This document shows, one piece after another, positions 19,091-37,881 of a DNA stretch of 64,000 nucleotides. The notes below the pieces were generated by a model that saw only the letters and a program-made list of their open reading frames with translations, ran no database searches and was not told the DNA's origin. The position numbers were made by a program, and so were the translations under genes. Position 1 is the first letter of the stretch; each line of letters opens with the position of its first letter. The stretch spans positions 1 through 64,000 of IMG/VR virus record IMGVR_UViG_3300044535_000389; one strand, given 5' to 3'. This stretch comes from a virus.

Positions 19091-19266
19091 GCGTTTTCTT
19101 CAAGCCATTCTATCTGGTGATTAGCTACCGTAATGGAAACTATGTTGCCGCCATCGTCCTCAAGGGTCAGGTCCACCCCAGTGGAGTTTTCTCTTGTCTT
19201 GGCCTCGTGGACGAAATAAATCTTACCAGCATGTTCCCAGCTGTCGTTGTCTATTCTACAGTGCAT
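19087..19266 (-). CDS. Small hypothetical protein after ANL enzyme 1
   Basis: 59 aa (MHCRIDNDSWEHAGKIYFVH...). The ATG overlaps the end of the ANL gene by 11 bases. Beta-rich and acidic. Its stop codon is part of the next promoter. Unrecognised. Confidence 0.68.
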   Translation of the reverse strand: MHCRIDNDSWEHAGKIYFVHEAKTRENSTGVDLTLEDDGGNIVSITVANHQIEWLEENA

Positions 19267-20617
19267 AGTGATGCTCCAAATACGCTCTTAGTTGTTCCAT
19301 ACTGACTTTGGTATCTACCATAAAGTCTTCTTTATTTAGGTATACAAATGTAAACGCCTTTTCAAGATAAGTCTTACCATTTTCTATATCATATCTTTCT
19401 TGCTTGTTCCAAAGGACAATAAAATGCTTTCCATTATTAGGAACTACAAAACTATGATCGCCAAATTGTTCTTGCATCATCTGTTTAAGTTCGCCCGTGT
19501 ATAACGGGTGGTCGTCATTTCTACCACCATAATAAAAACGGTCGCCTTCAACTAATAAAGCGTCTGCTACTGGTCTTGGTGCTGGCCAGAGGTCAGAGTG
19601 AACCATATCACCGTCGATCTTGTATAGGTCATCTACCAATTTACCTATATATCCTGGTTGGTATACGGAATCTGGTGTTATTCTATTTACCAGCAAAGGT
19701 ACACCAGTATCGACAGAGCCGTAATGGGACATGAAATCTATTGGATATTCTTTGGTCATATCGTATATCTCTGGCCCAGCTGGAAACCCAGACATATTGA
19801 TTGTAATTCTATGACTAGGACGCCGATCGGCCTCAGGAAAACCGAGTTTCAGTGCGTCTAGCACAAAACTATTAGAGCATATCAGAGTGTCTACTTTTCT
19901 ATCGGTCAAACATTCTTCGACAAATTCTTTTGGGCGCCATATTTTCTTTTGGTGATGAGGAACCCAAGCAACGCTTCCAGAATAATGAACGTCACACACC
20001 ATTAGAGTTGGAAGAAGATATGATAACATAGCAGAAGCATGGTGCATATTTACCGTCTGTTGCACCACGTTCCGCTTAGTATAACCAAAAGCAGATATAT
20101 TTCTTTGCGAAATCTTATACACCTCATCGTGGGTAAAGAAGTATGGCTTAGATACGCCTGTGGTACCACTAGTTGAAGCGAATATCAGAGCATCACTAGG
20201 AGAAACGGGTATATCTACATCTGTGTCGTTTGTTATCTCATCGATTTCATCTTCGTAACAAACCTGCTTGCTATATCGCTCAAACATTTCAGTCTGTAGG
20301 TCATTTTCATCCAACATTCTCTGAGAGATAGTTATATCAACAGGACCAAATATTGCCATCTTTGTAACATGAAGTGTTTCTTTGGCAATTGGCTTGGCAA
20401 TGATGAAAATTTTCAATCCTAATTCTGCGGCTGCAAATAGACAGGCAATATGATTTAAGTTTACATCAAAAATACCAAGGGCCATTACATCACCGCTGCG
20501 AAGTTCCTTGTATATCAGAAGTCTCTTCCAACGGTTGATGAGGCGAAATAGATCATCTCTATTCGCCCCATCGTAGTTTATGTCAGGATTGATTATATGC
20601 CTGTTAATCACGGGCAT
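19256..20617 (-). CDS. Adenylate-forming (ANL) enzyme, paralog 1
   Basis: 453 aa. FASTSGTTGVSKPYFF (about residue 149) is the A3 P-loop of acyl/aryl-CoA synthetases and adenylation domains; VNMHHASAMLSYLLP the following helix; SHYGSVDTGVP (about 295) the A5 adenine/acyl site; FYYGGRNDD (about 365) the A8 hinge with Arg and Asp. The C-terminal domain is short and I see no clear A10 Lys, so it may adenylate without full thioesterification. No carrier-protein domain. Two paralogs lie at 31480 and 36415. Activated substrate unknown. Confidence 0.85.
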   Translation of the reverse strand: MPVINRHIINPDINYDGANRDDLFRLINRWKRLLIYKELRSGDVMALGIFDVNLNHIACLFAAAELGLKIFIIAKPIAKETLHVTKMAIFGPVDITISQRMLDENDLQTEMFERYSKQVCYEDEIDEITNDTDVDIPVSPSDALIFASTSGTTGVSKPYFFTHDEVYKISQRNISAFGYTKRNVVQQTVNMHHASAMLSYLLPTLMVCDVHYSGSVAWVPHHQKKIWRPKEFVEECLTDRKVDTLICSNSFVLDALKLGFPEADRRPSHRITINMSGFPAGPEIYDMTKEYPIDFMSHYGSVDTGVPLLVNRITPDSVYQPGYIGKLVDDLYKIDGDMVHSDLWPAPRPVADALLVEGDRFYYGGRNDDHPLYTGELKQMMQEQFGDHSFVVPNNGKHFIVLWNKQERYDIENGKTYLEKAFTFVYLNKEDFMVDTKVSMEQLRAYLEHHYAL

Positions 20618-20792
20618 AGAGCGCGGCCCTAATATCCTTGTATGCTTGGTCTAGAATGGCCTTGATACGAGCCTTCTCTGATGGCATGGCACCCTTAGCC
20701 TCAACGTAAATGTTACAATTGAGAGTGCTTTCACCAGCTTCTGTTTCCATATCGCTGGTCATGTCGTTGTAAAAGAGTTGTGTATTAATCAT
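20604..20792 (-). CDS. Small hypothetical protein
   Basis: 62 aa; polar N-terminus and helical C-terminus (MPSEKARIKAILDQAYKDIRAAL). Overlaps ANL enzyme 1 by 14 bases, so co-translated. Length would fit a small partner or carrier, but no DSL phosphopantetheine motif is present. Confidence 0.65.
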   Translation of the reverse strand: MINTQLFYNDMTSDMETEAGESTLNCNIYVEAKGAMPSEKARIKAILDQAYKDIRAALYARD

Positions 20793-21009
20793 TTTTATTC
20801 ATTGCCTCCATAATTATATTTACGCGGTGCATCGCTTCTAGAATGCGAGTTATTGTAATTAGTAGCACACAACCTATCCACCATCCAAAAAACATGGCCT
20901 CTCCGATATGTGTTCCGCTAACGAAAAATTTAGTGGCTGCAATAAATGCGGCCAAGACAAAGCCCTTGAAACAATTATCAATAAACCAATTAGCTAAGGT
21001 TATGTTCAC
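20785..21009 (-). CDS. Two-span membrane protein
   Basis: 74 aa with hydrophobic segments at about 12-30 and 38-56 (GEAMFFGWWIGCVLLITIT). Overlaps neighbours by 8 and 20 bases. Unrecognised. Confidence 0.7.
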   Translation of the reverse strand: MNITLANWFIDNCFKGFVLAAFIAATKFFVSGTHIGEAMFFGWWIGCVLLITITRILEAMHRVNIIMEAMNKND

Positions 21010-21491: not shown

Positions 21492-22220
21492 TTATTCAAA
21501 ATATTCCTTGAACCAATTGGCCACATGAACGTGGGCTTCTTCGCTTGGATGGTCGTCCCATGGGCAGAGTAGATTCTTACCCATAGACTCAAATGTCTTG
21601 CTCTTGTCAAACAGGAAAATATTTTCATCGGTTTCCAGATAATCAATGTATTCATCCATAGTCTTACGAGAGGCAATGCGTCGAGTTTGCAGGCCGCGCT
21701 TCAATGCGGTGTCAATACATGCATCACGGAACCACATCTGCACACAGGTAATATCCATAGAGTCGCATAGATTTTTAATTGTGGCAACATGGTACAATGT
21801 CTTCAACATGTCGGAATGATACGAAGACAACTGTTCGTAGTATGTGGCCAGAGCCTTCTTTGTGGCTTTGGGTATATTATCAAAGTCAACCGATGAGCCG
21901 CGTAGTTGTAGGGCATCCACATCAAAAGGATATGGTTCATCCCTGTAGTCGGTGAATTCAAAACGAGATGGGTCCGACCACACGATAATAACACGCTCTG
22001 GTTTGTGTTGTAGAATATCTATGAAGGCACGGCGGGCAATCCGAGAGTTAGAAGAGCCTGGCGTTGCCATGTTCATTTCTTCCATATCCCAGGCATCAGC
22101 CAGTAGTTTAGAGAAACGCTTGGCTTCACACTTGGCATAGACTTCTTTCATGTTACCAGGTGCATAACGCTCAATACCGATACCATATGCAAAACTACAA
22201 CCGTTTACGTATAACTTCAT
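21492..22220 (-). CDS. SGNH-like hydrolase, large form A
   Basis: 242 aa from the ATG at 22220 (GGAGAA upstream). NGCSFAYG at residues 5-12 is block I with the Ser; ATPGSSNSRIARRA about 54 carries the Gly/Asn; WDDHPSEEAH near 227 gives D-x-H. This resembles SGNH-like proteins common in T4-like phages and in capsule/exopolysaccharide loci. It probably removes or transfers an acyl group. Relationship to forms B and C is distant; they share the order but not the motif wording. Confidence 0.8.
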   Translation of the reverse strand: MKLYVNGCSFAYGIGIERYAPGNMKEVYAKCEAKRFSKLLADAWDMEEMNMATPGSSNSRIARRAFIDILQHKPERVIIVWSDPSRFEFTDYRDEPYPFDVDALQLRGSSVDFDNIPKATKKALATYYEQLSSYHSDMLKTLYHVATIKNLCDSMDITCVQMWFRDACIDTALKRGLQTRRIASRKTMDEYIDYLETDENIFLFDKSKTFESMGKNLLCPWDDHPSEEAHVHVANWFKEYFE

Positions 22221-22402
22221 GTTCTTCTCCAGAAGGGGACATATGTTTCGCCCACCCATTTTGATTTTGGACACTTAGTATATAGTAGTTTCACTTTAGC
22301 TGGCATATGACACCCACATATACCACAGGTTTTACCGTTTAAGTGGACACATTCTAAACAAATATTCCAACGTCTCTCTTGTTCTTCTTCACTTGCTATC
22401 AT
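22217..22402 (-). CDS. Small zinc-ribbon protein (DUF6171-like)
   Basis: 61 aa from the ATG at 22402. RWNICLECVHL...TCGICGCHM...KVKLLYTKCPKSKW shows six cysteines in the order of small phage zinc-ribbon proteins: C-x2-C, C-x2-C-x-C, then C-P-x-x-K-W. The ORF could start two codons earlier at a TTG. ATGA overlap with the SGNH-like gene. Confidence 0.8.
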   Translation of the reverse strand: MIASEEEQERRWNICLECVHLNGKTCGICGCHMPAKVKLLYTKCPKSKWVGETYVPFWRRT

Positions 22403-22664
22403 AATCAATTGCGTTTACAAATGAAAATTTCTGTCCTTCGGTCCAGTCTTTTAGATACTCATTGTCTTCGTCAAACTGGCGAAGATACTCCACATCATCA
22501 ATCTCACGAGCGGTGGTAATCACTTCATCAACATGGTGTTGAGAAAACTCCGCAAGTTCTCCCACATTCATGGTAACTTCATCCTTGGCATCGGCCGGGC
22601 TATTTGCTTCGATGACATACCGCATACGGAACATGGAGATTGTTTCTACAAGATACTTAGCCAT
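22389..22664 (-). CDS. Conserved T4-like phage hypothetical
   Basis: 91 aa. MAKYLVETISMFRMRYVIEA..., FSQHHVDEVITTAREI, and YLRQFDEDNEYLKDW form a pattern I recall in T4-like phages of marine and other bacteria. Function unknown. Confidence 0.8.
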   Translation of the reverse strand: MAKYLVETISMFRMRYVIEANSPADAKDEVTMNVGELAEFSQHHVDEVITTAREIDDVEYLRQFDEDNEYLKDWTEGQKFSFVNAIDYDSK

Positions 22665-23379
22665 TTAAAAATCCTTTCTTAAAGTCAACTTCTAGCATAC
22701 TTCTATAGTCTCCGTCAAGACATTTTAAAACATAATCACAAAAAATCTTGTGATTGTCTTCTGATATATGATTAGGTCTAGCATCAAAAATTCTATTTCT
22801 AGAGTATTCACCCTCTGTTGCAAATTCTTGATGGCTAATCTGTCTCATATAGCCGTCTAAGTGAAAATCATATGACAGAGTAAAATCGGAATAACGGGCC
22901 TCATCAAAGGCATTAATCAACAGTTTTTTGTTGCTTAATCCGTTAAGGGCTTCTCGTATCAAATTTACTTGCGCCCGATGTAACTCAGGATTATAGAAAT
23001 GAAACCAAGTTTCATAAAAACTTTTATGCTCATTATAATGTTGTTTCAATGATGGTGGAAACTTAACATTCTCAAATGAGAAGCCTTGCGTCGAAAACAG
23101 TTGTAATATGGCCGAAGATTCTGCATCAAAATCTGGATGTACCAAAGGAGAGCGTCCACTAGAAGTCACGACAAAAATAATAATATCGTCAGGAGAATAT
23201 GACTTATTCAGGTATTCATAATATTTTACGGTAGCATAGTTTAATGAACTGCCTCGGCGGGCATAGTTGTTAATACCTAACCCTAACGTCTTAGCAGTCT
23301 CTTTCCACCAAATATATTTACCATCTGTATCCGTATATTCGGCACAAAAACTATCACCGAACAATACTAAGTTAGCCAT
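22657..23379 (-). CDS. SGNH-like protein, large form B
   Basis: 240 aa from the ATG at 23379. LVLFGDSFCAEY (residues 4-15) is block I; ARRGSSLNYATVKYYEYL the block II/III region; VVTSSGRSPLVH a beta strand; FDARPNHISEDNH near the C-terminus offers Asp and two His. Form C (23554-24300) is a clear paralog sharing the FYNPELHR/FFNPAIHK and DARPNHxxEDNH motifs. Substrate unknown. Confidence 0.8.
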   Translation of the reverse strand: MANLVLFGDSFCAEYTDTDGKYIWWKETAKTLGLGINNYARRGSSLNYATVKYYEYLNKSYSPDDIIIFVVTSSGRSPLVHPDFDAESSAILQLFSTQGFSFENVKFPPSLKQHYNEHKSFYETWFHFYNPELHRAQVNLIREALNGLSNKKLLINAFDEARYSDFTLSYDFHLDGYMRQISHQEFATEGEYSRNRIFDARPNHISEDNHKIFCDYVLKCLDGDYRSMLEVDFKKGFLNG

Positions 23380-23551
23380 CGATGCGCCCAAGACGATGCA
23401 GCAAGTTTGAGATAACCGCTACATCTGGATGAGGTTCTCGTTCGCTATATCCCTCTACTCTCATAATGTCGAGTAGATACGAATGCAATGCCCGCTTGAT
23501 GACGGGAATATCGGTGGGGGCAAACGCGCCGCCCTTAGCTTCTTTTACCAT
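23372..23551 (-). CDS. Small hypothetical protein between SGNH paralogs
   Basis: 59 aa from the ATG at 23551 (MVKEAKGGAFAPTDIPVIKR...). Helical. Overlaps form B by 8 bases. Unrecognised. Confidence 0.68.
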   Translation of the reverse strand: MVKEAKGGAFAPTDIPVIKRALHSYLLDIMRVEGYSEREPHPDVAVISNLLHRLGRIDG

Positions 23552-23553: not shown

Positions 23554-24300
23554 TCAATCTTCCTTAAAAAGGTCAGTCTTAAATTTTACGGAACTTAACG
23601 GTGAATAATTATACTGCAAACACTCATACATGTAATCCGCTAGAATATAGTGGTTATCTTCGTGGAGATGGTTAGGTCTAGCATCCCAGCTACCAAGTTT
23701 ACCTGTTCTGGTTTTTATCTTACCTCTGAAATGCTCACCGCTCTTTCCGCTTATATGCTCATTCTCACTAGCAACCATTAGATTGCCGCATGGATGACAT
23801 TCGGGTCGATTATTATCATTTGTTGGGTCAGAATCCTCGAATGCAGATAATACCAATTTCTTATTAGGCAAAGAGTTTATTGCTTTTGTAATAAAGTAAC
23901 ACTGTGACTTATGAATAGCCGGATTAAAGAATTTTAGCCAGGTCTTGTAGTATTCTTCATGTTCTTTGAAGTGTTCGGTAACATATGGATTATCTAGTTT
24001 TTCCAATAGTTTATCATCACCCACGATGAATTTATATAGTGTCGACCAGGATGGATAATATGCATCGTGGACTATAGGTGCCCGGTAGCAAGATGTCAGG
24101 ACAACAACTATGATATCCGTTTCTTGGTAATCATTCTCTAGATAGTCGAACAGCTTAATAGAGGTATATTCCAGATTGGTGGCAGCCAGTGAATAGTATT
24201 TCACTGGTACATCAAATTTGGAAGACAGGAGTTTGGGCCAAGTTATTTCTTGTACCCTCTCATCTGCAAAACTATCGCCAAAAACTACTAATCTAGACAT
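23554..24300 (-). CDS. SGNH-like protein, large form C
   Basis: 248 aa from the ATG at 24300, which overlaps the TAA of the gene upstream (TAATG). LVVFGDSFADE is block I; YSLAATNLEYTSIKLFDYL parallels form B but lacks its Gly-Ser-Ser; WDARPNHLHEDNH matches form B. An inserted stretch with Cys/His (RPECHPCGN) is absent from form B. A recent duplication followed by divergence is likely. Confidence 0.8.
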   Translation of the reverse strand: MSRLVVFGDSFADERVQEITWPKLLSSKFDVPVKYYSLAATNLEYTSIKLFDYLENDYQETDIIVVVLTSCYRAPIVHDAYYPSWSTLYKFIVGDDKLLEKLDNPYVTEHFKEHEEYYKTWLKFFNPAIHKSQCYFITKAINSLPNKKLVLSAFEDSDPTNDNNRPECHPCGNLMVASENEHISGKSGEHFRGKIKTRTGKLGSWDARPNHLHEDNHYILADYMYECLQYNYSPLSSVKFKTDLFKED

Positions 24301-24851
24301 TAATCCCATAGTCCTCTATAGTAGACACCAAACAGACGGGTGCCATTGTCAATACGCTTGTTATGTGCCTTCCATCCCTCAACATCGAGGATACCATTTT
24401 TGAAGTAAATATCATCGTTGCCATCTTCCACCATCTGTTCGAATGCCCAGATCATTTCATCCATGACCCAGTCCCAACGCTTGTGCCAGTTGCTGTCAGT
24501 TTCAAACTCATGTCCTGGATCTTCGGAGGCAGCAAAGCGAAGTTCTTCTGGAACATCTTCATCTGCCACGGCAGGTGAACCATGCTTGGTTGCCTTGAGT
24601 TGCTTTAACATAGGAAGAATAATCAGAGCAAGAGTGTCGTCCATACTCCATGTGTCATATGGGTCGATACGAATCTCGACCTTCCTCTTACTGAAAAAAT
24701 ATGCGGATATTTCGGTAATTGGTGTGTGTTTATCTAACCATTCCCCTAATGCGAAAACCGCATCATCGTCTTTGTCTTTCCAGAACAGAATCTTTTCTGC
24801 AATCTGGTATGGACCAAACCAACGTGGATATGGACCTATGTTAATCTTCAC
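24300..24851 (-). CDS. Conserved T4-like phage hypothetical
   Basis: 183 aa. MKINIGPYPRWFGPYQIAE, IRIDPYDTWSMDDTLALIILPMLKQLK and RWDWVMDEMIWAFEQ form a highly characteristic pattern found in many T4-like phages. Function unknown; the acidic centre (PAVADEDVPEEL) suggests a structural or scaffold-like role but this is a guess. Confidence 0.85.
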   Translation of the reverse strand: MKINIGPYPRWFGPYQIAEKILFWKDKDDDAVFALGEWLDKHTPITEISAYFFSKRKVEIRIDPYDTWSMDDTLALIILPMLKQLKATKHGSPAVADEDVPEELRFAASEDPGHEFETDSNWHKRWDWVMDEMIWAFEQMVEDGNDDIYFKNGILDVEGWKAHNKRIDNGTRLFGVYYRGLWD

Positions 24852-30131: not shown

Positions 30132-30137
30132 TAAAAT

Positions 30138-30212: not shown

Positions 30213-30215
30213 ATT

Positions 30216-30290: not shown

Positions 30291-30294
30291 ATTA

Positions 30295-30372: not shown

Positions 30373-30373
30373 T

Positions 30374-30445
30374 TGGTACCAGCAGGTGGTAATGATCCAC
30401 CCAAACTAACCTTATGAGAGTCAGTCGAACACCTGTTCTACTGGT
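30374..30445 (-). tRNA. Divergent tRNA-like gene, anticodon CAT
   Basis: 72 bases fitting exactly between tRNA-Cys and tRNA-Ile. Acceptor ACCAGTA pairs with TGCTGGT (one G-T), A73 and CCA are encoded, anticodon loop CTCATAA on a weak stem, T stem GGTGG/CCACC perfect. But the T-loop is ATCATTA instead of TTCRANN, and the D arm is a tight GAAC-AGGT-GTTC hairpin. Either a functional, divergent elongator Met/Ile2 tRNA or one decaying; standard tRNA finders may miss it. Confidence 0.6.
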
Positions 30446-30446
30446 G

Positions 30447-30522
30447 TGGTGCGAATAACAGGAATTGAACCTGTGACCTTTCCCTTATCAGGGGAATGCT
30501 CTACCATCTGAGCTATATTCGC
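30447..30522 (-). tRNA. tRNA-Ile(GAT)
   Basis: Acceptor GCGAATA/TATTCGC, anticodon loop CTGATAA, A73, CCA encoded. Confidence 0.92.
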
Positions 30523-30528
30523 ATCTTA

Positions 30529-30972: not shown

Positions 30973-30986
30973 TATAACCTCAATAT

Positions 30987-31062
30987 TGGTGGACACTTTG
31001 GGGTTCGAACCCAAGACCTACAGGTTAAAAGCCCGTTGCTCTACCTACTGAGCTAAGTGTCC
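30987..31062 (-). tRNA. tRNA-Lys(TTT)
   Basis: Acceptor GGACACT/AGTGTCC, anticodon loop CTTTTAA, A73, CCA encoded. Confidence 0.93.
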
Positions 31063-31068
31063 GTGAAA

Positions 31069-31144
31069 TGGTAGACGATGTAGGATTCGAACCTACGACC
31101 TAAGGATTAAGAGTCCCGCGCTCTACCGACTGAGCTAATCGTCC
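31069..31144 (-). tRNA. tRNA-Lys(CTT)
   Basis: Acceptor GGACGAT/ATCGTCT, anticodon loop CTCTTAA, A73, CCA encoded; the top pair of the anticodon stem is a C-T mismatch. Probably a duplicate of the neighbouring Lys gene that shifted to CTT. Confidence 0.88.
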
Positions 31145-31152
31145 ATTAAATT

Positions 31153-31227
31153 TGGTAGACGAGGAGGGACTCGAACCCCCAACCTAACCGTTATGAGCGG
31201 TCGGCTCTACCATTGAGCTACTCGTCT
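31153..31227 (-). tRNA. tRNA-Met(CAT), elongator or Ile2
   Basis: Acceptor AGACGAG/CTCGTCT fully paired, so not an initiator; anticodon loop CTCATAA; A73; CCA encoded. Elongator Met and Ile2 (lysidine) cannot be told apart here. Confidence 0.9.
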
Positions 31228-31423
31228 ATATGTAGACCCGAACACGATCGGAATCTACAGGAGCACCGACCACTCGACGCTCTATGTAGTAATAATCTAT
31301 GAAATGATCGCCGTCACGGGTATACACACCGTGGGCAGCCCGCGCTTCATCTTCAGATGCATACACACCCAACAGCAACGAACCTTCGTAATCCCATTCA
31401 CCTAACAATGCAAAAACTTCCAT
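31226..31423 (-). CDS. Small hypothetical protein, regulon member
   Basis: 65 aa: MEVFALLGEWDYEGSLLLGVYASEDEARAAH..., a compact beta-alpha protein. Leader GATTCGTC-ATG and promoter 31455-31483. Its stop codon touches tRNA-Met. An early gene placed inside the tRNA array. Confidence 0.75.
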   Translation of the reverse strand: MEVFALLGEWDYEGSLLLGVYASEDEARAAHGVYTRDGDHFIDYYYIERRVVGAPVDSDRVRVYI

Positions 31424-31454
31424 GACGAATCACTTTCTCTCTGACTATATTCTC

Positions 31455-31483
31455 ATAATAGCTGATTCGCCGGTAAATGTCAA
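31455..31483 (-). promoter_or_regulatory. Sigma70-like early promoter, module member
   Basis: TTGACA (31478-31483), 17-base spacer with GCGAATC, TATTAT (31455-31460). Overlaps the TGA of ANL enzyme 2; can transcribe into the 3' half of the tRNA array. Confidence 0.76.
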
Positions 31484-32760
31484 GTGCTAAATTTTTCTAG
31501 ATATCCCAAAAGTTGATAAACATTGACCTTGGTTTCGGTAGTCCATTGTTCTTTACTGAGGTAATGAACGGTCATACCAGGCACTTCAACGCCCTCACTA
31601 TCATTCCAGATGATTAGGTTGTTTCCGTAAACAGATAGGTCTTTCTTTAGCAGACGCTTACATGCCTTTTCAACGGGATCTACCTCAACACGGCCGTTAT
31701 GATACCACTTACCATTCTTCTCGGTCAACTTATCTTCTAGAACTCTACGTCCTACCCAAGGACCTTCTACTAGAATTTCATCACCCGTAATGATCTTGTA
31801 GTAATCATCAGGCTCTACGCCTAGCCAATTTTCTTGCCATTTGGAATGCTTTGTCACATGATTCAACAAAAGGGGAATGCCCGTATCTACAGAACCGAAG
31901 TGCGATAGAAACTCTACGTTGAAGAACTCGCAATACTCCACATATTCAGCCGGGATAGTATAGCCACTGAGATTAATCAGCAGAGTTGCATCAAACTGGT
32001 CTGAGAAATATTTTACCAAATCACGGACGACAAATGCACTACCAAAGAAAACTCTATCTACCTTCTTTTCTTTGATGAACGTAAAGAAGTTCGGCATATC
32101 ATCATAGATATTATAGTAATAGTGCTTATCTGCTACCATAAGAGCAGGTAGCAAGAAGGTCATCATACAACTAACGTGATGCATGTTTCGGGTATGACAA
32201 ACTACGGATTGTGGTTCGAACTTGAAAACGCCTGTGTTTCTCTTTGAGAGGTCGAAGCAATCTTTCTGCGTGAAGTATACCGGTTTAGGTCTGCTGGTTG
32301 TTCCACTTGATGAACCACAAAGAAAGATTTCATCGGGCGAACTATAATCTTCCAACATTTTTTCTGTGACGCTATCAATTTCTGTCTCGAAAATGTTCAT
32401 TTTACAGTAGCGATTTACCATTTCCATATATGGTTCGCTTTTTGCAAGATATTCATCTACGACATGGAAGTCAATAGGATTAAATACCGAGGCTTTTGTT
32501 CGGTCAATCGTTTCAACGGCCGCTGGCTTATCAAGTAATACCAGTCTCATTGCCAATTCACCCGCTGCAAAAATAAGGGCTAGATGATTTGGGCTTACCA
32601 TGACAAGAGAAATGCCAAGGGAGTCTCCTCTCATGGCACCTCTTTTGACTAAGAGAAATTTCCATCGATCAATTAAGCTACACATTTCTTCGCGGGAAAC
32701 TACATTTCCTTTTTCATCTTCATATGAAAAATTGTCAGTCAAAATGTTCTTGTTGATCAT
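31480..32760 (-). CDS. Adenylate-forming (ANL) enzyme, paralog 2
   Basis: 426 aa. FLCGSSSGTTSRPKPVYF (about 146) is the A3 loop; RNMHHVSCMMTFLLPALMV matches paralog 1; FLSHFGSVDTGIPLLLNHVT (about 276) is the A5 region, almost the same wording as paralog 1. WYHNGRVEVDP (about 350) is A8-like with N-G-R. The C-terminal domain is short. It sits between tRNA-Ser and an early gene inside the array. ATG start with a T-run and GATC upstream; no strong ribosome-binding site is seen. Confidence 0.84.
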   Translation of the reverse strand: MINKNILTDNFSYEDEKGNVVSREEMCSLIDRWKFLLVKRGAMRGDSLGISLVMVSPNHLALIFAAGELAMRLVLLDKPAAVETIDRTKASVFNPIDFHVVDEYLAKSEPYMEMVNRYCKMNIFETEIDSVTEKMLEDYSSPDEIFLCGSSSGTTSRPKPVYFTQKDCFDLSKRNTGVFKFEPQSVVCHTRNMHHVSCMMTFLLPALMVADKHYYYNIYDDMPNFFTFIKEKKVDRVFFGSAFVVRDLVKYFSDQFDATLLINLSGYTIPAEYVEYCEFFNVEFLSHFGSVDTGIPLLLNHVTKHSKWQENWLGVEPDDYYKIITGDEILVEGPWVGRRVLEDKLTEKNGKWYHNGRVEVDPVEKACKRLLKKDLSVYGNNLIIWNDSEGVEVPGMTVHYLSKEQWTTETKVNVYQLLGYLEKFST

Positions 32761-32774
32761 AGGTTATCTCAAAC

Positions 32775-32862
32775 TGGAGGAAGCGGTGGGATTCGAACCC
32801 ACGGTACCTTGCGGTACGACAGTTTTCAAGACTGTAGGTTTCAACCGCTCACCCACGCTTCC
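32775..32862 (-). tRNA. tRNA-Ser(TGA)
   Basis: Perfect acceptor GGAAGCG/CGCTTCC, long variable arm, anticodon loop CTTGAAA, CCA encoded. Discriminator is U73 rather than the G73 usual for bacterial Ser. Confidence 0.9.
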
Positions 32863-32866
32863 AATA

Positions 32867-33103
32867 TTATACGCCCACGGCGCTACGATATGTATCTAGG
32901 ATCATATCTTCTTCCTGTCTCACATGTGCTTCCAGCTTACGGAGACGCACAATCTTACGAACGGCCTTGGTATCAAACCCTTCACCCTTCAATTCAGAAT
33001 AGACTTCCTTACGGTCAATCTTCTTCACATCAATCTCGGCTTCGATGTTTTCAATACGCTCAATGAACAGGCGAAGTTGGTCTACTGCAATAATATCACT
33101 CAT
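32867..33103 (-). CDS. GapR/DUF2312-like DNA-binding protein
   Basis: 78 aa. QLRLFIERIENIEAEI (residues 9-24), VYSELKGEGFDTKAVRKIVRLRKLEAHVRQEED and a final LDTYRSAVG reproduce the GapR/DUF2312 pattern almost in full. GapR is a nucleoid protein of Alphaproteobacteria that clamps overtwisted DNA ahead of polymerases. A phage copy may redirect host chromosome organisation or help phage DNA topology. Best single clue to an alphaproteobacterial host. Confidence 0.9.
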   Translation of the reverse strand: MSDIIAVDQLRLFIERIENIEAEIDVKKIDRKEVYSELKGEGFDTKAVRKIVRLRKLEAHVRQEEDMILDTYRSAVGV

Positions 33104-33124
33104 TATATATGTCCTTAAAAAAGA

Positions 33125-33200
33125 TGGATGCCCCTCCAGGGCTCGAACCTGGACTCTTCGGAATCAAAATCCAACGTGTTGCCAATTACACCAAGGGGCA
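33125..33200 (-). tRNA. tRNA-Gln(TTG)
   Basis: U1-A72 acceptor TGCCCCT/AGGGGCA as typical for Gln, anticodon loop TTTTGAT, CCA encoded. Confidence 0.92.
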
Positions 33201-33201
33201 A

Positions 33202-33277
33202 TGGTACGGGATGACGGGCTCGAACCGCCGACATTCTGCGTGTAAAGCAGACGCTCTACCAACTGAGCTAATCCCGC
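33202..33277 (-). tRNA. tRNA-Val(TAC)
   Basis: Acceptor GCGGGAT/ATCCCGT, anticodon loop TTTACAC, A73, CCA encoded. Confidence 0.92.
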
Positions 33278-33945
33278 GTAATTATGACCAGATCTTGTCT
33301 CCAGTCATTTGATATTATAGTCGTTTTATTGTATTTGTCAAGCATTTTTGAAAAATAATCAACGTTATAATATGTCCACAAGAAACGAACATTTTCTTGA
33401 GGAAACTCTTGTGTTATTTTAGACTTTGTTTTACCATCTACGTCACATTGATAGACGTAACAATAGTCCATATTTTCATGCTCTGGGAAAAATCTAAGAA
33501 GTCCTATTTCACCATAAACGGTTTCAGTATCTTTTCCGTATGCTGTCCAAGAAATTAACATTTTTCCGTTTTCGGCCAAGTGACTATAAAGCCACTCTAT
33601 TAGGGTCAACATCTCTTCTTTTGAAGTATGTGTGAAGACACTATGCGCTATGATTAAATCATACTTTTCTTCTATTACTGGAAGTTGTTCTTTTCCTCCA
33701 GGATTATATTCTGGATTAAATCCGTCATAATGGATGAAGTTTGCACCAGGAAACATACGTCTTCCTGTTTCAATTGCATCCTCACAGATATCAATGCCAG
33801 TATAATTTTCTTGAGGAAAAGATCCGTTAGAAGTTTCTAGAAATATACCATAGTTGCAACCAAAATCTAATACCTTTCGTTCATCGACATCTGGTATCAT
33901 ATCTTTTATCACAGTATGAATGGGCAAATAATAGTGTATTAGCAT
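33268..33945 (-). CDS. SAM-dependent methyltransferase (class I)
   Basis: 225 aa. VLDFGCNYGIFLETS (about residue 24) is motif I; YTGIDICEDAI the acidic strand II; YDLIIAHSVFTHTSKEEM (about 106) motif IV; NGKMLISWTAYG motif V. Typical methyltransferase type-11/25 small-molecule or protein enzyme; not a DNA methyltransferase motif. The methyltransferase at 46285 has the same AHSVFTH wording. The end of the CDS overlaps the tRNA-Val gene by 10 bases. Confidence 0.86.
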   Translation of the reverse strand: MLIHYYLPIHTVIKDMIPDVDERKVLDFGCNYGIFLETSNGSFPQENYTGIDICEDAIETGRRMFPGANFIHYDGFNPEYNPGGKEQLPVIEEKYDLIIAHSVFTHTSKEEMLTLIEWLYSHLAENGKMLISWTAYGKDTETVYGEIGLLRFFPEHENMDYCYVYQCDVDGKTKSKITQEFPQENVRFLWTYYNVDYFSKMLDKYNKTTIISNDWRQDLVIITRD

Positions 33946-34386
33946 TTAGTGCCTCACTACATGGTCGGCAGCATGTGTTGCCGCAAACGAATCGGGTTTG
34001 ATTTTAGCATCAATCCCTGTTGTTCCCTTAACATACCCCAATGCTTCTTTAACAGCAATGTTAGATTTATGCTTGGGATCTGGATTGATATCAAGGTGGA
34101 TTTCTAGATGCCGATTGCCAATTACATCAACAATTTCAGTTGCTGCTTCGATGGCAAATCCTGCTTCGGTAATCAGACGTTGACGTAAGTTACCAAAGTC
34201 ACGCATTTCTACGTTTCTAGAAAATATTTTACCGCCATGCTTAGAATCCATGTGAAGAATAATGACGGTGGAATACTTGGCGTACCACTCACCGCTACGC
34301 TTTTTGAATCTAATAGAATCAGCACCTATATAAACAGATGACGTTTCACTGGAGTTTAGAATTGCTTCTCTTGCCTCATCATACAT
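33946..34386 (-). CDS. RNase H-fold protein (YkuK/DUF458-like)
   Basis: 146 aa. VYIGADSIRFK (about 17) has the first Asp of an RNase H-like strand; LRQRLITEAGFAIEAATEI, IHLDINPDPKHKSNIAVKEALGYVKG and KPDSFAATHAADHVV match the DUF458/YkuK family in order. Predicted RNase H-like nuclease or nucleic-acid-binding protein; activity unproven. Confidence 0.84.
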   Translation of the reverse strand: MYDEAREAILNSSETSSVYIGADSIRFKKRSGEWYAKYSTVIILHMDSKHGGKIFSRNVEMRDFGNLRQRLITEAGFAIEAATEIVDVIGNRHLEIHLDINPDPKHKSNIAVKEALGYVKGTTGIDAKIKPDSFAATHAADHVVRH

Positions 34387-34404
34387 GCGTCACCTGTTTA
34401 TAAA

Positions 34405-34478
34405 TGGCGAAGGTGCCGGGATTCGAACCCGGAACGACGGTTTTGGAGACCGTAATGATACCATTTCACTACACCAAC
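34405..34478 (-). tRNA. tRNA-Trp(CCA) with acceptor-stem mismatches
   Basis: Anticodon loop CTCCAAA on a perfect ACGGT/ACCGT stem, T-loop TTCGAAT, G73, CCA encoded. Acceptor GTTGGTG faces CACCTTC, leaving two adjacent T-T mismatches at pairs 2-71 and 3-70. Confidence 0.85.
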
Positions 34479-34485
34479 AAAAAAA

Positions 34486-34562
34486 TGGTCTGGAATGTAG
34501 GATTCGAACCTACGACCCCCTGCTCCCAAAGCAGGTGCGCTACCAGGCTGCGCTAATCCCAG
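34486..34562 (-). tRNA. tRNA-Pro(TGG)
   Basis: C1-G72 acceptor CTGGGAT/ATTCCAG typical for Pro, anticodon loop TTTGGGA, CCA encoded. Confidence 0.92.
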
Positions 34563-34571
34563 AAACTTTAG

Positions 34572-34760
34572 TTACTTTGAATCTGCTTGTGGAGTTGCTT
34601 CCGACGCAACAACTTCTACAGTTTCTGTTGCATTTGCTGTAGCAAGTGCAGCATCAGCCGCTGGGCCAGCAGCTTCCGATACAGATGGTGTTTCCGCGGT
34701 AGGAGCGCAAGCGGCAGTAAGAGCGGCAACTGCGAGAACCATAAAAGTCTTGATATTCAT
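34572..34760 (-). CDS. Small lipoprotein
   Basis: 62 aa. MNIKTFMVLAVAALTAAC is a complete lipoprotein signal peptide with lipobox L-T-A-A-C; the mature part is Ala/Thr/Glu-rich and unstructured. A phage-made lipoprotein could block superinfection at the outer membrane, as known for other phages; unproven here. AAGGAATTAATT precedes the ATG. Confidence 0.75.
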   Translation of the reverse strand: MNIKTFMVLAVAALTAACAPTAETPSVSEAAGPAADAALATANATETVEVVASEATPQADSK

Positions 34761-34817
34761 AATTAATTCCTTGGTTGTTATATGAAATTATCGCGCATCT
34801 AACATTCGTGATAATTC

Positions 34818-34899
34818 TGGAGCCCAAGATAGGATTCGAACCTACATCTTACTTCCAGTTACCTTTGGCTCCGTTCGTAGCGGAGAGGGATACTTGGGC
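34818..34899 (-). tRNA. tRNA-like gene, Arg(ACG) anticodon, no D arm
   Basis: 82 bases. Acceptor GCCCAAG/CTTGGGC is perfect, the T arm GTAGG-TTCGAAT-CCTAT is canonical and CCA is encoded. A perfect hairpin CTCCG-CTACGAA-CGGAG has the exact form of an anticodon arm (C32 T33 ACG A37 A38). But only 7 bases replace the D arm, and 23 bases separate the anticodon arm from the T arm. That region (CCA-AAGGTAAC-TGG) looks more like a displaced D arm. Arg is the only amino acid otherwise missing from the array. Confidence 0.6.
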
Positions 34900-34904
34900 A
34901 AACT

Positions 34905-34977
34905 TGGAGCGACCGATGGGATTCGAACCCACTCCGTCAGCTTGGAAGGCTGAGTCCTCACCCAGGAGAACAGTCGC
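34905..34977 (-). tRNA. tRNA-Gly(TCC)
   Basis: Acceptor GCGACTG/CGGTCGC with one G-T, anticodon loop CTTCCAA, U73, CCA encoded. Confidence 0.9.
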
Positions 34978-34983
34978 ATTTAT

Positions 34984-35292
34984 CTAAATGCTGGCTCTAA
35001 TAGCTATGACAGTTTGCACATCATAGAAATCATCTTGGTCTAGACCTTCTGATTCAAGAGTTACAACTTCTGCTTCATCGATGAATGTTATTCTGGAATC
35101 TGCAAGCTCTCTTGCAACACAAGCCTGTGCCGCTGCCTGCGTAGAATACAAAGTGCAGAGAGGATTTCCAGGCTTTACACCTAGAAAATCAGTATCATCA
35201 ATTAGACTATCGAACTTTTCAGCCAGATCGTTACCTGCTAGAGAGTTGTAATGGTTAGCATTATTAACAAAAAATTTAGCGATATATGCCAT
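34984..35292 (-). CDS. Hypothetical protein (paralog of next gene)
   Basis: 102 aa. NHYNSLAG, CTLYSTQAAAQACVARELAD and a final DDFYDVQTVI segment correspond in position to parts of 35318-35605, so the two look like diverged tandem copies. Unrecognised otherwise. Lies within the tRNA array. Confidence 0.7.
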   Translation of the reverse strand: MAYIAKFFVNNANHYNSLAGNDLAEKFDSLIDDTDFLGVKPGNPLCTLYSTQAAAQACVARELADSRITFIDEAEVVTLESEGLDQDDFYDVQTVIAIRASI

Positions 35293-35317
35293 TGCTTTTT
35301 TCCTGCTCTTTTATGTA

Positions 35318-35605
35318 TTAATTGTCGGGAACATAGAAATCGCTGACCGCTAAGCCATCAGCATCTTCTAGAGGCATTACGGTGGTAGTCGGTTGACCAC
35401 CGATTACAAGAGGATCTGCCCGATGACTTTCTGCAAAAGCATAGGCATTTTCTGCCGTGTCGAATAGAAAATATGTGGTCATGCCGCCTTTTAGGCCGAT
35501 GAAGCCAGTTCTGCTTTTCCAATCATCATTTCGACTCTTTTTTGCCTCGGGTGAATGGTCAATGTGATTAACTTGAACCAAGGTACATTTTACAACATAA
35601 GACAT
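35318..35605 (-). CDS. Hypothetical protein with late promoter
   Basis: 95 aa. NHIDHSPEAKKSR, YFLFDTAENAYAFAESHRAD and SDFYVPDN parallel the downstream neighbour. An exact TATAAATA late box (35638-35645) lies about 33 bases upstream, overlapping the 5' flank of the array. Function unknown. Confidence 0.72.
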   Translation of the reverse strand: MSYVVKCTLVQVNHIDHSPEAKKSRNDDWKSRTGFIGLKGGMTTYFLFDTAENAYAFAESHRADPLVIGGQPTTTVMPLEDADGLAVSDFYVPDN

Positions 35606-35637
35606 AAATTTTCTCCAACAATGGGTATCTCTATCGC

Positions 35638-35645
35638 TATTTATA
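35638..35645 (-). promoter_or_regulatory. T4-type late promoter inside the tRNA array
   Basis: Exact TATAAATA on the minus strand directly after tRNA-Asp; would drive 35605-34984 and the tRNAs downstream at late times. Confidence 0.72.
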
Positions 35646-35649
35646 ACAT

Positions 35650-35726
35650 TGGCGACTCGGACGGGACTTGAACCCGCAACTTCCAGCGTGACAGGCTGGT
35701 GCTCTAACCAATTGAACTACCGAGCC
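35650..35726 (-). tRNA. tRNA-Asp(GTC)
   Basis: Acceptor GGCTCGG/CCGAGTC, anticodon loop CTGTCAC, G73 as expected, CCA encoded. Confidence 0.92.
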
Positions 35727-35732
35727 TTATAT

Positions 35733-35817
35733 TGGTGGGCCAGTGAGGTATCGATCCTCCCCCGAAGACGGACGAGATTTACAGTCTCGCTGCTAGAGCC
35801 ACTAGCTTTACCGACCC
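35733..35817 (-). tRNA. tRNA-Tyr(GTA)
   Basis: Acceptor GGGTCGG/CTGGCCC, long variable arm, anticodon loop CTGTAAA, CCA encoded. Confidence 0.92.
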
Positions 35818-35822
35818 AAAAA

Positions 35823-35898
35823 TGGTGCTCCCGAACGGATTCGAACCGCTGACACGTGGTTCTTCAAACCACTGCTCTACCAACTGAGCTACAGGAGC
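35823..35898 (-). tRNA. tRNA-Phe(GAA)
   Basis: Acceptor GCTCCTG/CGGGAGC, anticodon loop TTGAAGA, A73, CCA encoded. Confidence 0.92.
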
Positions 35899-35905
35899 GT
35901 AATAG

Positions 35906-35988
35906 TGGTACGCCTAGAGGGACTCGAACCCCCACGCTTTCGCACTGGTACCTAAAACCAGCGTGTCTACCAATTCCACCATAGGCGC
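35906..35988 (-). tRNA. tRNA-Leu(TAG)
   Basis: Acceptor GCGCCTA/TAGGCGT, long variable arm, anticodon loop TTTAGGT on CTGGT/ACCAG, A73, CCA encoded. Confidence 0.91.
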
Positions 35989-35997
35989 AAAAAGAGC

Positions 35998-36110
35998 GAC
36001 CACCTGCAGTGTGCCTTGATCGAATTACGTCCGGGCGCTTCGATCTTCCCAGATAAAGAATACTGTTGCAACAGTATCTCTACCCCTTCGCGGGTTCAGC
36101 AGAGGTGGTC
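35998..36110 (-). ncRNA. Structured RNA candidate within the tRNA array (1)
   Basis: 113 bases closed by a perfect 8 bp stem (GACCACCT at 36103-36110 on the minus strand with AGGTGGTC at 35998-36005). Inside are a 7 bp palindromic hairpin (36060-36077, ATACTGT-TGCA-ACAGTAT), a 7 bp hairpin GATCGAA/TTCGATC (36018-36024 with 36039-36045) and a small CCC/GGG hairpin (36084-36094). No open frame, no tRNA loops, no CCA. It sits between tRNA-Ala and tRNA-Leu, spaced like another tRNA, recalling the two small stable RNAs of unknown function in the T4 tRNA cluster. Confidence 0.65.
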
Positions 36111-36115
36111 TAACT

Positions 36116-36191
36116 TGGTGGAGAATAACGGGTTCGAACCGTTGACATCCAGCTTGCAAAGCTGGCGCTCTACCAACTGAGCTAATTCCCC
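36116..36191 (-). tRNA. tRNA-Ala(TGC)
   Basis: Acceptor GGGGAAT/ATTCTCC, anticodon loop TTTGCAA, A73, CCA encoded. Confidence 0.92.
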
Positions 36192-36199
36192 AAAACTTA

Positions 36200-36433
36200 T
36201 TATTTTTTATAAGAGTTAATATATTTTTGGTATTCTTTGTTTGGATGATTTACCAATCGTTTATGGTACAGATCAATTATAGTTTTTGCGGCCGTACCAG
36301 GCAACAGATTAGGAAAAAATCCATGTATGAAACTTGCTAATGCTGCCCAAAGTAATCTCAGTCCAGCCGAATTTGCAAAAACAAAATGGCTTAAATAAGT
36401 TTCTTTGCTTTTTTCTAAGTGTTCTCTAAACAT
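36200..36433 (-). CDS. DUF6356-like small protein
   Basis: 77 aa. MFREHLEKSKETYLSHFVFA, then a hydrophobic LRLLWAALASFIHGFFPNLLP and IIDLYHKRL match the DUF6356 layout. Possibly membrane-associated. Overlaps the end of ANL enzyme 3 by 19 bases, so the two are co-translated; it could be its membrane partner. Confidence 0.75.
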   Translation of the reverse strand: MFREHLEKSKETYLSHFVFANSAGLRLLWAALASFIHGFFPNLLPGTAAKTIIDLYHKRLVNHPNKEYQKYINSYKK

Positions 36434-37881
36434 CTAAAAAATTCCCTCATTAATTCTTTATCTAACTTGACTCCAAAATAGTAATCTTTGAAATCCAGAA
36501 TTGCAAACTTATCTATACGAACTAGATTGGTTCCGTGATGAAAGAGAATTGCAGCATCTATTTCCATAACTAATTCGTTTATATCTTTATCATAAGACGA
36601 GTTGATTGCTAGATAGATTTGGTTTTCGATAATATCTATAACAACAGAAACGTTGTTATCATATTTAGCAGAAATATTTTCAAGGAATGGCAAGTCTACT
36701 GTAGTATCATTGATACGAATGACATCGGTGCGCCCGGTATGTTTATACTCATGCCAGTGGGCTTTTACCTTCACGAACTTATCATTCGTAGCTACCGTCT
36801 TATCATAAACGGGCATGTGAACTAAGAGACCGCCTTCTTCATCGAAAGAAACGCCATAGAAAGCATCTGGTTTAAAAAACTCGGTGTTATCAAAAGTATC
36901 GGCATTAACCGCGGTTAATCTGGACAACAGAAGTGGTCCAGCAGTTTCATTGCAACCAAAAACACTTTCTATGCTTTCAACATAACCTTCTTTCACATAT
37001 TTCGTATAATCATATGGAATGTAAGACAGAAGATCCAAACGCATATTTGGATATTTTACGCCGTGATTTTCCAACGAAGTAAAAAACTTATCGGAAAGAT
37101 CCCTATATGATAAAGTGGCATGATTGATATCTTGGTCCTTCAAAGTCAGGACTAAGTTATCAAGAATTTCCGCGCGGTGTGACATAAGATAGTGGTTCTT
37201 TACCGCATCGCTATGCAACGAAGGTAAGAAAAACACACTCAAACTACTACCGTGATTAAGGTTTCTGCTATGCAGAACGTTACCCGAAAATCTCGACGAA
37301 TTTCTCTTACACAATTCATAGAAAAATCTATGTGTATGTGTAAGTAGCTTCGGAGTATTTGTGGTACCGCTGCTGGTGCATATCATTAAAGTATCGTCTG
37401 GGTGCGGCCGAATTACAGAGATTTCATCAAATCTTTTTTGATTGTCAACTGTAATAAGACGCAAATCCTCAATGCTAAATGATTTATTGCAATAGTCTAT
37501 GAACCACGCGGATTTAGAATATGAATAACCGGCAGCATCATGAATATAGATGTTGATAGGCGACAGTAACTTAACTTTAGGATTTACCTTATCACTAGCC
37601 AGATATGCTGGCAGTTGATCCGCAATAGTAACTACCAAGGACAACTCGAAACTGGCAAAACAAAGGGCAAGATAGTCACTATCTACCACTAGTAGTCCGA
37701 TAAGAATCCTATCGCCTTTTTTGGCGCCGCATGTTTCAGTTAAAACATACTTCCAATGGTCAATCTTCTTGACCAATTCATCTTTATTAATCGAATCTGG
37801 TGTGGGGTATTCTGTTGCAAGAGGACTAATGTCTACGCTTTGATAATTGTCCGAGATAAAATCTCTCGTTAAAGTCTGCAT
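36415..37881 (-). CDS. Adenylate-forming (ANL) enzyme, paralog 3
   Basis: 488 aa from the ATG at 37881, with GGAGATGTT directly before it; the longer frame to 37950 has no signal. LMICTSSGTTNTPKLLTHTH (about 144) is the A3 loop; RNLNHGSSLSVFFLP corresponds to RNMHH in paralog 2; ESVFGCNETAGPLLLSRLT (about 296) is A5; HTGRTDVIRIND (about 380) is A8. The C-terminal domain is longer than in paralogs 1 and 2 and includes a Lys (FGVKLDKELM) where A10 would fall, so this copy may be the complete enzyme. Substrate unknown. Confidence 0.84.
   Translation of the reverse strand: MQTLTRDFISDNYQSVDISPLATEYPTPDSINKDELVKKIDHWKYVLTETCGAKKGDRILIGLLVVDSDYLALCFASFELSLVVTIADQLPAYLASDKVNPKVKLLSPINIYIHDAAGYSYSKSAWFIDYCNKSFSIEDLRLITVDNQKRFDEISVIRPHPDDTLMICTSSGTTNTPKLLTHTHRFFYELCKRNSSRFSGNVLHSRNLNHGSSLSVFFLPSLHSDAVKNHYLMSHRAEILDNLVLTLKDQDINHATLSYRDLSDKFFTSLENHGVKYPNMRLDLLSYIPYDYTKYVKEGYVESIESVFGCNETAGPLLLSRLTAVNADTFDNTEFFKPDAFYGVSFDEEGGLLVHMPVYDKTVATNDKFVKVKAHWHEYKHTGRTDVIRINDTTVDLPFLENISAKYDNNVSVVIDIIENQIYLAINSSYDKDINELVMEIDAAILFHHGTNLVRIDKFAILDFKDYYFGVKLDKELMREFFRCLENT

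What the first reader, a model, noticed from the sequence alone, without database searches (positions are those of the whole stretch)
19256..37881. Three paralogous adenylate-forming enzymes in one phage
ANL paralogs of 453, 426 and 488 aa share the A3 loop, an RNMHH-type helix and the SHxGSVDTGxP adenine site, but have no carrier domain and differ in the C-terminal domain. Two of them flank or sit in the tRNA array. ANL enzymes activate carboxylic acids; three in one phage point to acylation or amidation of several targets (DNA base, glycan, tRNA or small molecule). I know of no described phage pathway using such a trio.
Basis: partly seen in the sequence, partly recalled or inferred. Interest (0 to 1): 0.85.

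Follow-up and report, generated by a model that had tools for sequence, protein, structure and literature searches.

The report
Phage-only family of acid-activating enzymes
This aquatic phage carries three different, apparently working copies of an enzyme that charges small organic acids with ATP; they belong to a widespread, undescribed family that I found only in uncultured viruses, and what the phages attach the activated acids to is unknown.

Summary
Window 19256-20617, 31480-32760 and 36415-37881 (all minus) encode three divergent ANL (adenylate-forming) proteins. Pfam AMP-binding hits, AlphaFold models and Foldseek agree. The ATP-site residues are all present: P-loop, A5 acid, A7 Asp, A8 Arg and A10 Lys. 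Orthologues of ANL1 and ANL3 are under purifying selection (dN/dS 0.08-0.11).

They belong to an undescribed phage family found on about 65 uncultured-virus contigs. It has no match in 50,697 isolate phage records and none in two limited pattern scans of 84,980 prokaryote genomes. The trio is old: ANL3 groups with a different subclade, and ANL1 and ANL2 are not sisters. The alpha-amino-binding Asp of NRPS A-domains is an invariant His, and no record encodes a carrier protein. The likely substrates are therefore non-amino carboxylic acids.

The tRNA link is not conserved. Known hydroxymethyl-based DNA hypermodification is unlikely (no ThyA-type enzyme). Context is mixed: sugar, sulfotransferase-like and SGNH-like genes in the window's group; a coupled TctC carboxylate receptor in another clade. 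Best reading: stand-alone acyl-adenylating enzymes supplying acyl groups to decorate a sugar or glycan (about 0.35-0.4); main rival, carboxylate-uptake metabolism. A new variant of a known enzyme kind; target unproven.

The parts
19256..20617 (-). ANL1, 453 aa stand-alone adenylate-forming enzyme (P0001)
   Evidence: Pfam AMP-binding 6e-10; AF2 pTM 0.89 and Foldseek to acyl-ACP synthetase 8i3i 1.2e-18; orthologue L002 77% identical, dN/dS 0.11
20156..20176 (-). ANL1 A3 phosphate-binding loop STSGTTG (residues 148-154)
   Evidence: Family alignment A5, residue table
19307..19309 (-). ANL1 A10 catalytic lysine codon (K437, DTKVSMEQLR)
   Evidence: Conserved in 25 of 26 family members with a complete C-terminus
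31480..32760 (-). ANL2, 426 aa stand-alone adenylate-forming enzyme (P0002), inside the tRNA array
   Evidence: Pfam AMP-binding 1.4e-8; 32% identical to ANL1; A3 SSSGTT, A5 FGSVD, D343, R357, K411 present
36415..37881 (-). ANL3, 488 aa stand-alone adenylate-forming enzyme (P0003), inside the tRNA array
   Evidence: Pfam AMP-binding 2.7e-6; AF2 pTM 0.83, Foldseek 1.1e-20 to PltF, MenE, Acs; A5 FGCNE, D367, R384, K472; dN/dS 0.08-0.10 against L010/L014 orthologues
28077..38323 (-). tRNA array (23 tRNAs) that contains ANL2 and ANL3; context only
   Evidence: ARAGORN; association not conserved in most relatives
18563..19036 (-). HExxH-type metalloprotease-like gene next to ANL1; also next to the ANL1 orthologue in L002 (other order)
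   Evidence: BLAST cluster c39, 69% identity, PHROG 10499 7.9e-25 and metallo-protease PHROG 87 8e-4
21492..22274 (-). SGNH-like gene upstream of ANL1; membership in the pathway is inferred
   Evidence: GxSF...HPxxxxH motif alignment A6; no Pfam or PHROG hit
22657..23391 (-). SGNH-like gene; context
   Evidence: Alignment A6
23554..24309 (-). SGNH-like gene; context
   Evidence: Alignment A6; 97% identical in close relative L035
33268..33945 (-). SAM methyltransferase between ANL2 and ANL3; context
   Evidence: Pfam Methyltransf_23 1.5e-12
28138..29930 (-). Tandem pair of DUF6492-like (possible glycosyltransferase) genes near ANL2; context
   Evidence: Pfam DUF6492 0.0017, below cut-off
39464..40261 (-). 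Sulfotransferase-like gene (P-loop-like N-terminus, own reading); context
   Evidence: No Pfam or PHROG hit; sequence reading only

Best explanation
Each of the three proteins is a free-standing acid-activating enzyme of the ANL superfamily. Step 1 (fold and ATP site shown by sequence and model; activity itself inferred, about 0.85): it binds ATP and a carboxylic acid and makes an acyl-adenylate plus pyrophosphate. Step 2 (inferred, about 0.6): the acid is not an alpha-amino acid, and the three copies take different acids. Step 3 (inferred, about 0.35-0.4): the acyl group is passed directly or through host CoA, without a phage carrier protein, to a hydroxyl or amine of a sugar. It thereby acts as one decorating step beside sulfation, methylation and SGNH-type acyl chemistry, on a virion or host-surface glycan, which would alter recognition by host or competing phages. 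The confidence given is for the whole chain.
For: Enzyme class: Pfam AMP-binding in 28 of 28 family members; AF2 and Foldseek; all members with a complete C-terminus keep the A3 loop, A7 Asp and A8 Arg, and 25 of 26 keep the A10 Lys. Function maintained: dN/dS 0.08-0.11 and no stops inside in any of 26 records. Non-amino acids: the residue that aligns with the FH histidine of FadD13/MenE, where NRPS A-domains have the alpha-amino-binding Asp (family knowledge), is His in 28 of 28. No carrier: 0 of 18 records have PP-binding, with working controls. Sugar context in the window's own group: L002 has sulfotransferase-like, SGNH-like, ANL1 orthologue, NAD epimerase (2.9e-41) and UDP-galactopyranose mutase (2.5e-52) genes. 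L017 has UDP-glucose-dehydrogenase-type, GT2, methyltransferase, sulfotransferase-like, ANL and 2OG-oxygenase-like genes in one cassette. In L078/L079 an ANL-like pseudoenzyme is followed by two SGNH-like genes. A carbamoyltransferase lies about 6 kb downstream of the ANL in the nrd-linked group.
Against: Sugar genes are not next to the ANL in the gp47-ANL-gp46 clade or immediately next to it in the nrd clade, and many marine T4-like phages are rich in such genes anyway (own knowledge). I did not run an enrichment test: epimerase and GT2 hits in whole records are mostly far from the ANL. The SGNH-like and sulfotransferase-like calls rest on motifs, without Pfam or PHROG support. No acyltransferase partner was identified. 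In four members of the partly TctC-linked clade the A5 acid is Thr.
Confidence: 0.38

Rival explanations
1. Auxiliary metabolism: the phage boosts uptake of a carboxylate and activates it (as AMP then CoA ester) to feed host carbon and energy metabolism during infection. TctC/Bug periplasmic receptors would catch the acid and ANL would trap it inside the cell.
For: TctC (Pfam 1.2e-18 in L065) is directly adjacent to the ANL in L059/L072, L061/L065, L062/L063 (downstream) and in L073, L074/L075 (upstream), often overlapping by a few bases. The adjacency label needs at least 4 changes on the tree. TctC is almost absent from isolate phages: 1 of 50,697 records by tblastn with two queries. The A4 His fits acyl-CoA-synthetase-like substrates.
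Against: Only 8 of 26 records have TctC, and the window's phage has none. In G020/G021 TctC is not next to the ANL. Three divergent copies, and the much reduced C-terminal domain of the 401-427 aa members, do not suggest an ordinary CoA ligase.
Confidence: 0.27
2. DNA modification: the acyl-adenylate acylates or amidates a base in phage DNA to evade nucleases.
For: In several lineages the ANL lies between the recombination nuclease genes gp47 and gp46 or next to ribonucleotide reductase genes; the window has a DNA methylase at 15796.
Against: None of 18 records encodes a ThyA-family enzyme, the entry point of known hydroxymethyl-pyrimidine hypermodification, while 8 have ThyX. The ANL position between or near replication genes varies between lineages.
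Confidence: 0.1
3. tRNA- or translation-related acylation, as the location in the tRNA array might suggest.
For: ANL2 and ANL3 sit between tRNA genes, also in L010/L035.
Against: 16 of 20 other related loci have no tRNA within the fetched flanks; many other ORFs sit in the same array; the alpha-amino-binding Asp is missing.
Confidence: 0.04
4. Acyl donor for a small signalling or antibiotic-like molecule, or a counter-defence modification of a host protein or nucleotide, rather than a glycan.
For: PP-loop (QueC-like) gene just upstream of or overlapping the ANL in L026/L022/L047; radical-SAM, 2OG-oxygenase-like and carbamoyltransferase genes nearby in relatives; conserved inactive ANL partners.
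Against: No carrier protein; condensation, export and defence-related markers were not tested.
Confidence: 0.16
5. Decaying or binding-only relatives without catalysis.
For: Clear inactive paralogues exist in relatives (315-aa half-ANL in L023/L025/L036; P-loop-less ANL-like protein in L078/L079).
Against: The three window copies keep all ATP-site residues, and ANL1 and ANL3 have dN/dS of 0.08-0.11.
Confidence: 0.05

Closest known systems
Acyl-ACP synthetase AasS (PDB 8i3i) and fatty acyl-CoA synthetases such as FadD13 (3r44)
   Same: ANL fold, A3/A5/A7/A8/A10 residues, FH-type A4 histidine; best Foldseek match for ANL1 and among the best profile matches
   Different: 13-16% identity; phage proteins are shorter, mostly in the C-terminal domain; no carrier protein in the phage genomes
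o-Succinylbenzoate-CoA ligase MenE
   Same: Best PDB profile match (3ipl, 6.4e-9); similar compact size; same A4 and A5 alignment
   Different: NCBIfam menE score 24.6 bits against a cut-off of 330; no menaquinone gene context seen
NRPS adenylation domains and stand-alone aryl-acid ligases (EntE, FscC, CahJ, PltF)
   Same: Fold and P-loop; TIGR01733 hit weakly by 24 of 28 members
   Different: 28 bits against a cut-off of 317; His in place of the alpha-amino-binding Asp; no carrier domain or carrier gene
Uncultured Caudovirales proteins annotated 'AMP-dependent synthetase/ligase' (A0A6J5L571 and others in BFVD)
   Same: Best viral structural match, E 3.6e-27: phage ANLs have been deposited before, with automatic names
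   Different: No described function or family that I found; only about 5 such phage entries in BFVD; not in PHROGs as an ANL family
D-alanine-activating DltA of teichoic-acid decoration (from own knowledge)
   Same: Precedent for an ANL enzyme that supplies acyl groups to decorate a cell-surface polymer
   Different: DltA activates an amino acid and needs a carrier protein (DltC); neither is indicated here

Membership tests
ANL superfamily (AMP-binding enzymes) | AMP-binding domain by curated profile | tested here: met
   PF00501 in 28 of 28 family members; ANL1 and ANL2 above the gathering score, ANL3 26.9 against 29.9 bits
ANL superfamily (AMP-binding enzymes) | A3 phosphate loop [ST]SG[ST]T | tested here: met
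   STSGTTG, SSSGTT, TSSGTT
ANL superfamily (AMP-binding enzymes) | A5 acidic residue | tested here: met
   YGSVD, FGSVD, FGCNE
ANL superfamily (AMP-binding enzymes) | A7 ribose-binding Asp and A8 hinge Arg | tested here: met
   D352/R366 in ANL1 and equivalents in ANL2 and ANL3
ANL superfamily (AMP-binding enzymes) | A10 catalytic Lys in a C-terminal domain | tested here: met
   K437, K411, K472; 25 of 26 family members
ANL superfamily (AMP-binding enzymes) | Overall fold | tested here: met
   ANL1 and ANL3 models, Foldseek to hundreds of solved structures, the best being ANL enzymes; ANL2 not modelled
ANL superfamily (AMP-binding enzymes) | Adenylation activity | not testable with these tools
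   Needs ATP-PPi exchange or hydroxamate assay
NRPS amino-acid adenylation domain | Asp (D235 type) for the substrate alpha-amino group | tested here: not met
   His in 28 of 28 at the position aligned with the FH histidine of FadD13/MenE; the NRPS Asp at this position is from family knowledge
NRPS amino-acid adenylation domain | Carrier domain or carrier protein | tested here: not met
   PF00550 absent from 18 of 18 records, controls positive
Acyl-CoA / MenE-type ligase (NCBIfam families) | Curated family score | tested here: not met
   ANL1 hits far below cut-offs, e.g. menE 24.6 against 330
Acyl-CoA / MenE-type ligase | CoA as acyl acceptor | not testable with these tools
   C-terminal domain strongly shortened in many members; assay needed
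Described phage protein family (PHROGs) | Match to a functional PHROG | tested here: not met
   Only weak hits to three unknown-function PHROGs in 1-3 members
Hydroxymethyl-based phage DNA hypermodification | ThyA-family hydroxymethylase/synthase | tested here: not met
   PF00303 in 0 of 18 records

The most novel reading that the evidence does not exclude
A previously undescribed phage acylation system: a virus-restricted ANL family, present in up to three old, divergent copies per genome and sometimes paired with inactive ANL partners, that activates environmental or host carboxylic acids (delivered in one clade by a phage-encoded TctC receptor) and attaches them, without a carrier protein, to a phage-made or host-surface glycan or other polymer to change recognition or resistance.
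Probability: 0.22. Interest if true: 0.85.

Novelty: new variant of a known kind. Interest (0 to 1): 0.6.

Why it matters
If the enzymes work as their sequences say, uncultured aquatic phages have their own acid-activation chemistry, a reaction class for which I found no described phage enzyme. It would add acylation to the list of phage decorations. It would also explain an unannotated gene family that standard phage libraries miss. The TctC pairing gives a concrete, testable link between what a phage-infected cell takes up and what the phage does with it.

Tried and rejected
- Isolate-phage search: the one weak hit for ANL1 (Klebsiella phage OR941409, 101 aa at 33%, E 5e-3) has no ANL ORF there and is chance. 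ANL3, two relatives and one ANL-like pseudoenzyme gave no match.
- Bacterial relatives: two pattern scans of 84,980 genomes gave no relative. The scans use only two short peptides each, so this is not proof of absence.
- tRNA link: rejected as a general feature.
- ThyA-based DNA hypermodification: no marker.
- Carrier-dependent chemistry: no carrier protein.
- Sugar-gene proximity in whole records: epimerase and GT2 hits are mostly far from the ANL, so a universal sugar link is not supported.
- SGNH-like neighbours: a profile gave no PDB match, so the assignment rests on motifs.
- Literature: no described phage ANL family found in the held library. A remembered precedent (VioR as an ANL in viosamine acylation) turned out to be annotated as a reductase and was dropped (PMC3927599).
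Full report
OBSERVATION. The three ORFs exist as described. Pfam AMP-binding matches at 6e-10, 1.4e-8 and 2.7e-6; BLASTP shows the three are paralogues. The window lies in a 103.6-kb virus record, and these are its only AMP-binding genes. A second contig (L001/L077) carries all three, nearly or fully identical to the window, so they are not an assembly accident.

CATALYTIC STATE. I collected relatives and aligned 28 sequences (A5). The residue table shows the A3 phosphate loop, A7 Asp and A8 Arg in every member that is long enough, and the A10 Lys in 25 of 26. All three window copies also have the A5 acid. AlphaFold models of ANL1 (pTM 0.89) and ANL3 (0.83) match acyl-ACP synthetase, MenE, MatB, acetyl-CoA synthetase, PltF and other ANL enzymes. 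dN/dS of ANL1 against its L002 orthologue is 0.11; ANL3 against L010 and L014 orthologues is 0.08-0.10. ANL2 against L035 is saturated at synonymous sites. No member in 26 records has an internal stop. These are maintained genes.

SUBSTRATE CLASS (inference). In the profile alignment to FadD13 and MenE the invariant second His of the NMHH motif sits on the FH histidine of acyl-CoA synthetases. In NRPS A-domains this is the Asp that holds the alpha-amino group (established knowledge of that family). It is His in 28 of 28 members. No carrier protein is encoded in 18 records, with positive controls. Non-amino carboxylic acids are therefore the likeliest substrates, with CoA or a direct nucleophile as acceptor. 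Many members (401-427 aa) have a C-terminal domain reduced to little more than the hinge and the lysine helix.

DISTRIBUTION. Scans of IMG/VR found about 65 contigs with a family member. Four family members, including ANL1 and ANL3, and one ANL-like pseudoenzyme gave no real match in 50,697 isolate phage records. Pattern scans of 84,980 GTDB genomes gave no relative; those scans are limited. PHROGs and NCBIfam hold no matching family. BFVD holds about five uncultured-phage proteins that match, most with automatic ANL names, the best at 3.6e-27, so such proteins have been deposited but, as far as I could find, not described.

HISTORY. The tree puts ANL3 with the gp46/47-linked clade (95/91, but on a long branch), ANL1 with L002, and ANL2 with L035. 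ANL1 and ANL2 are not sisters, so the trio predates this phage lineage. In the close relative L035 most flanking proteins are 93-98% identical while ANL2 is only 57% identical, which suggests allele replacement or fast diversification at that locus.

CONTEXT. Four settings occur. (i) In the window's group, ANLs sit among tRNAs, SGNH-like, GT-like, methyltransferase and sulfotransferase-like genes. In L002 the ANL1 orthologue is flanked by sulfotransferase-like, SGNH-like, epimerase and UDP-galactopyranose mutase genes. In L017 the ANL is in a cassette with UDP-glucose-dehydrogenase-type, GT2, methyltransferase, sulfotransferase-like and 2OG-oxygenase-like genes. (ii) In the nrd-linked group the ANL follows nrdA-nrdB and precedes phoH and, about 6 kb on, a carbamoyltransferase. 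(iii) In another clade the ANL lies between gp47 and gp46 homologues, often with a TctC receptor directly before or after it. (iv) In L006/L020 it lies between virion genes.

INACTIVE PARTNERS. L006 fuses a C-terminally truncated ANL to a complete one in one 875-aa ORF. In L023, L025 and L036 a 315-325-aa half-ANL without a P-loop overlaps the start of the active gene. In L078/L079 an ANL-like protein lacks the P-loop. These are constrained (dN/dS 0.38 for the half-ANL, 0.07-0.17 for the pseudoenzyme), which hints at heteromeric enzymes.

EXPLANATION. The chemistry (acyl-adenylate formation) is well supported by sequence and model but not assayed. The target is not known. Given (i) and (ii) I favour decoration of a sugar or glycan, at about 0.35-0.4. 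Given (iii), a carboxylate-uptake metabolic role is the strongest rival. DNA-base modification is lowered by the absence of any ThyA-family enzyme, and tRNA acylation by the lack of conservation of the tRNA link. I did not run a neighbour-enrichment test, and epimerase and GT2 hits in whole records are mostly distant from the ANL, so the glycan link remains an inference.

NOVELTY. By membership tests these are ANL-superfamily enzymes. They are not members of any curated subfamily, and the NRPS-type features tested are not met. I call this a new, virus-restricted variant of a known kind.

Noticed in passing
L023 3536-4492, L025 9061-10008, L036 5346-6323: A 315-325 aa half-ANL without P-loop and without the A5-A10 region overlaps the start of the active ANL by 17 bp in several marine phage contigs; possible heteromeric partner.
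   Followed up: partly
L078 6198-7649 and L079 5374-6843: ANL-like pseudoenzyme with degenerate P-loop (TYSDGLCEDGFEFQ) followed by two SGNH-like genes and preceded by a 2OG-oxygenase-like gene and ThyX; conserved in L080-L087.
   Followed up: partly
L006 9017-11644: Fusion of a C-terminally truncated ANL and a complete ANL in one 875-aa ORF between baseplate and tail genes; the same ORF in L007-L009.
   Followed up: partly
L065 11455-12408, L063 11479-12417, L073 5311-6255, L075 9054-9998: Phage-encoded TctC/Bug tricarboxylate receptor genes with signal-peptide-like N-termini, directly adjacent to ANL genes; almost absent from isolate phages.
   Followed up: partly
L026 9305-9913 (also L022, L047): QueC-like PP-loop gene just upstream of or overlapping the ANL start (Pfam QueC 7e-4, below cut-off).
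   Followed up: no
window 31480-32760 versus L035 10001-11284: ANL2 is only 57% identical in a close relative whose flanking proteins are mostly 93-98% identical: allele swap or rapid diversification at this locus.
   Followed up: partly
L017 1403-1477: A tRNA with anticodon CTA (called tRNA-Pyl by ARAGORN) in the tRNA array of a related phage: possible amber-suppressor tRNA.
   Followed up: no
window 39027-39434: S-adenosylmethionine decarboxylase homologue (AdoMet_dc 7.3e-13); Pelagibacter phages have the same kind of annotation beside nrdA.
   Followed up: no
window 17274-17951: Zeta-toxin/AAA_33-type kinase (6.7e-17), possibly a nucleotide or polynucleotide kinase.
   Followed up: no
window 15796-16836: N6/N4 DNA methylase domain protein (2.4e-7).
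   Followed up: no
L002 12590-13873: Genes that read like CsgF/CsgG curli-secretion homologues on the contig with the ANL1 orthologue (own reading of the sequence).
   Followed up: no
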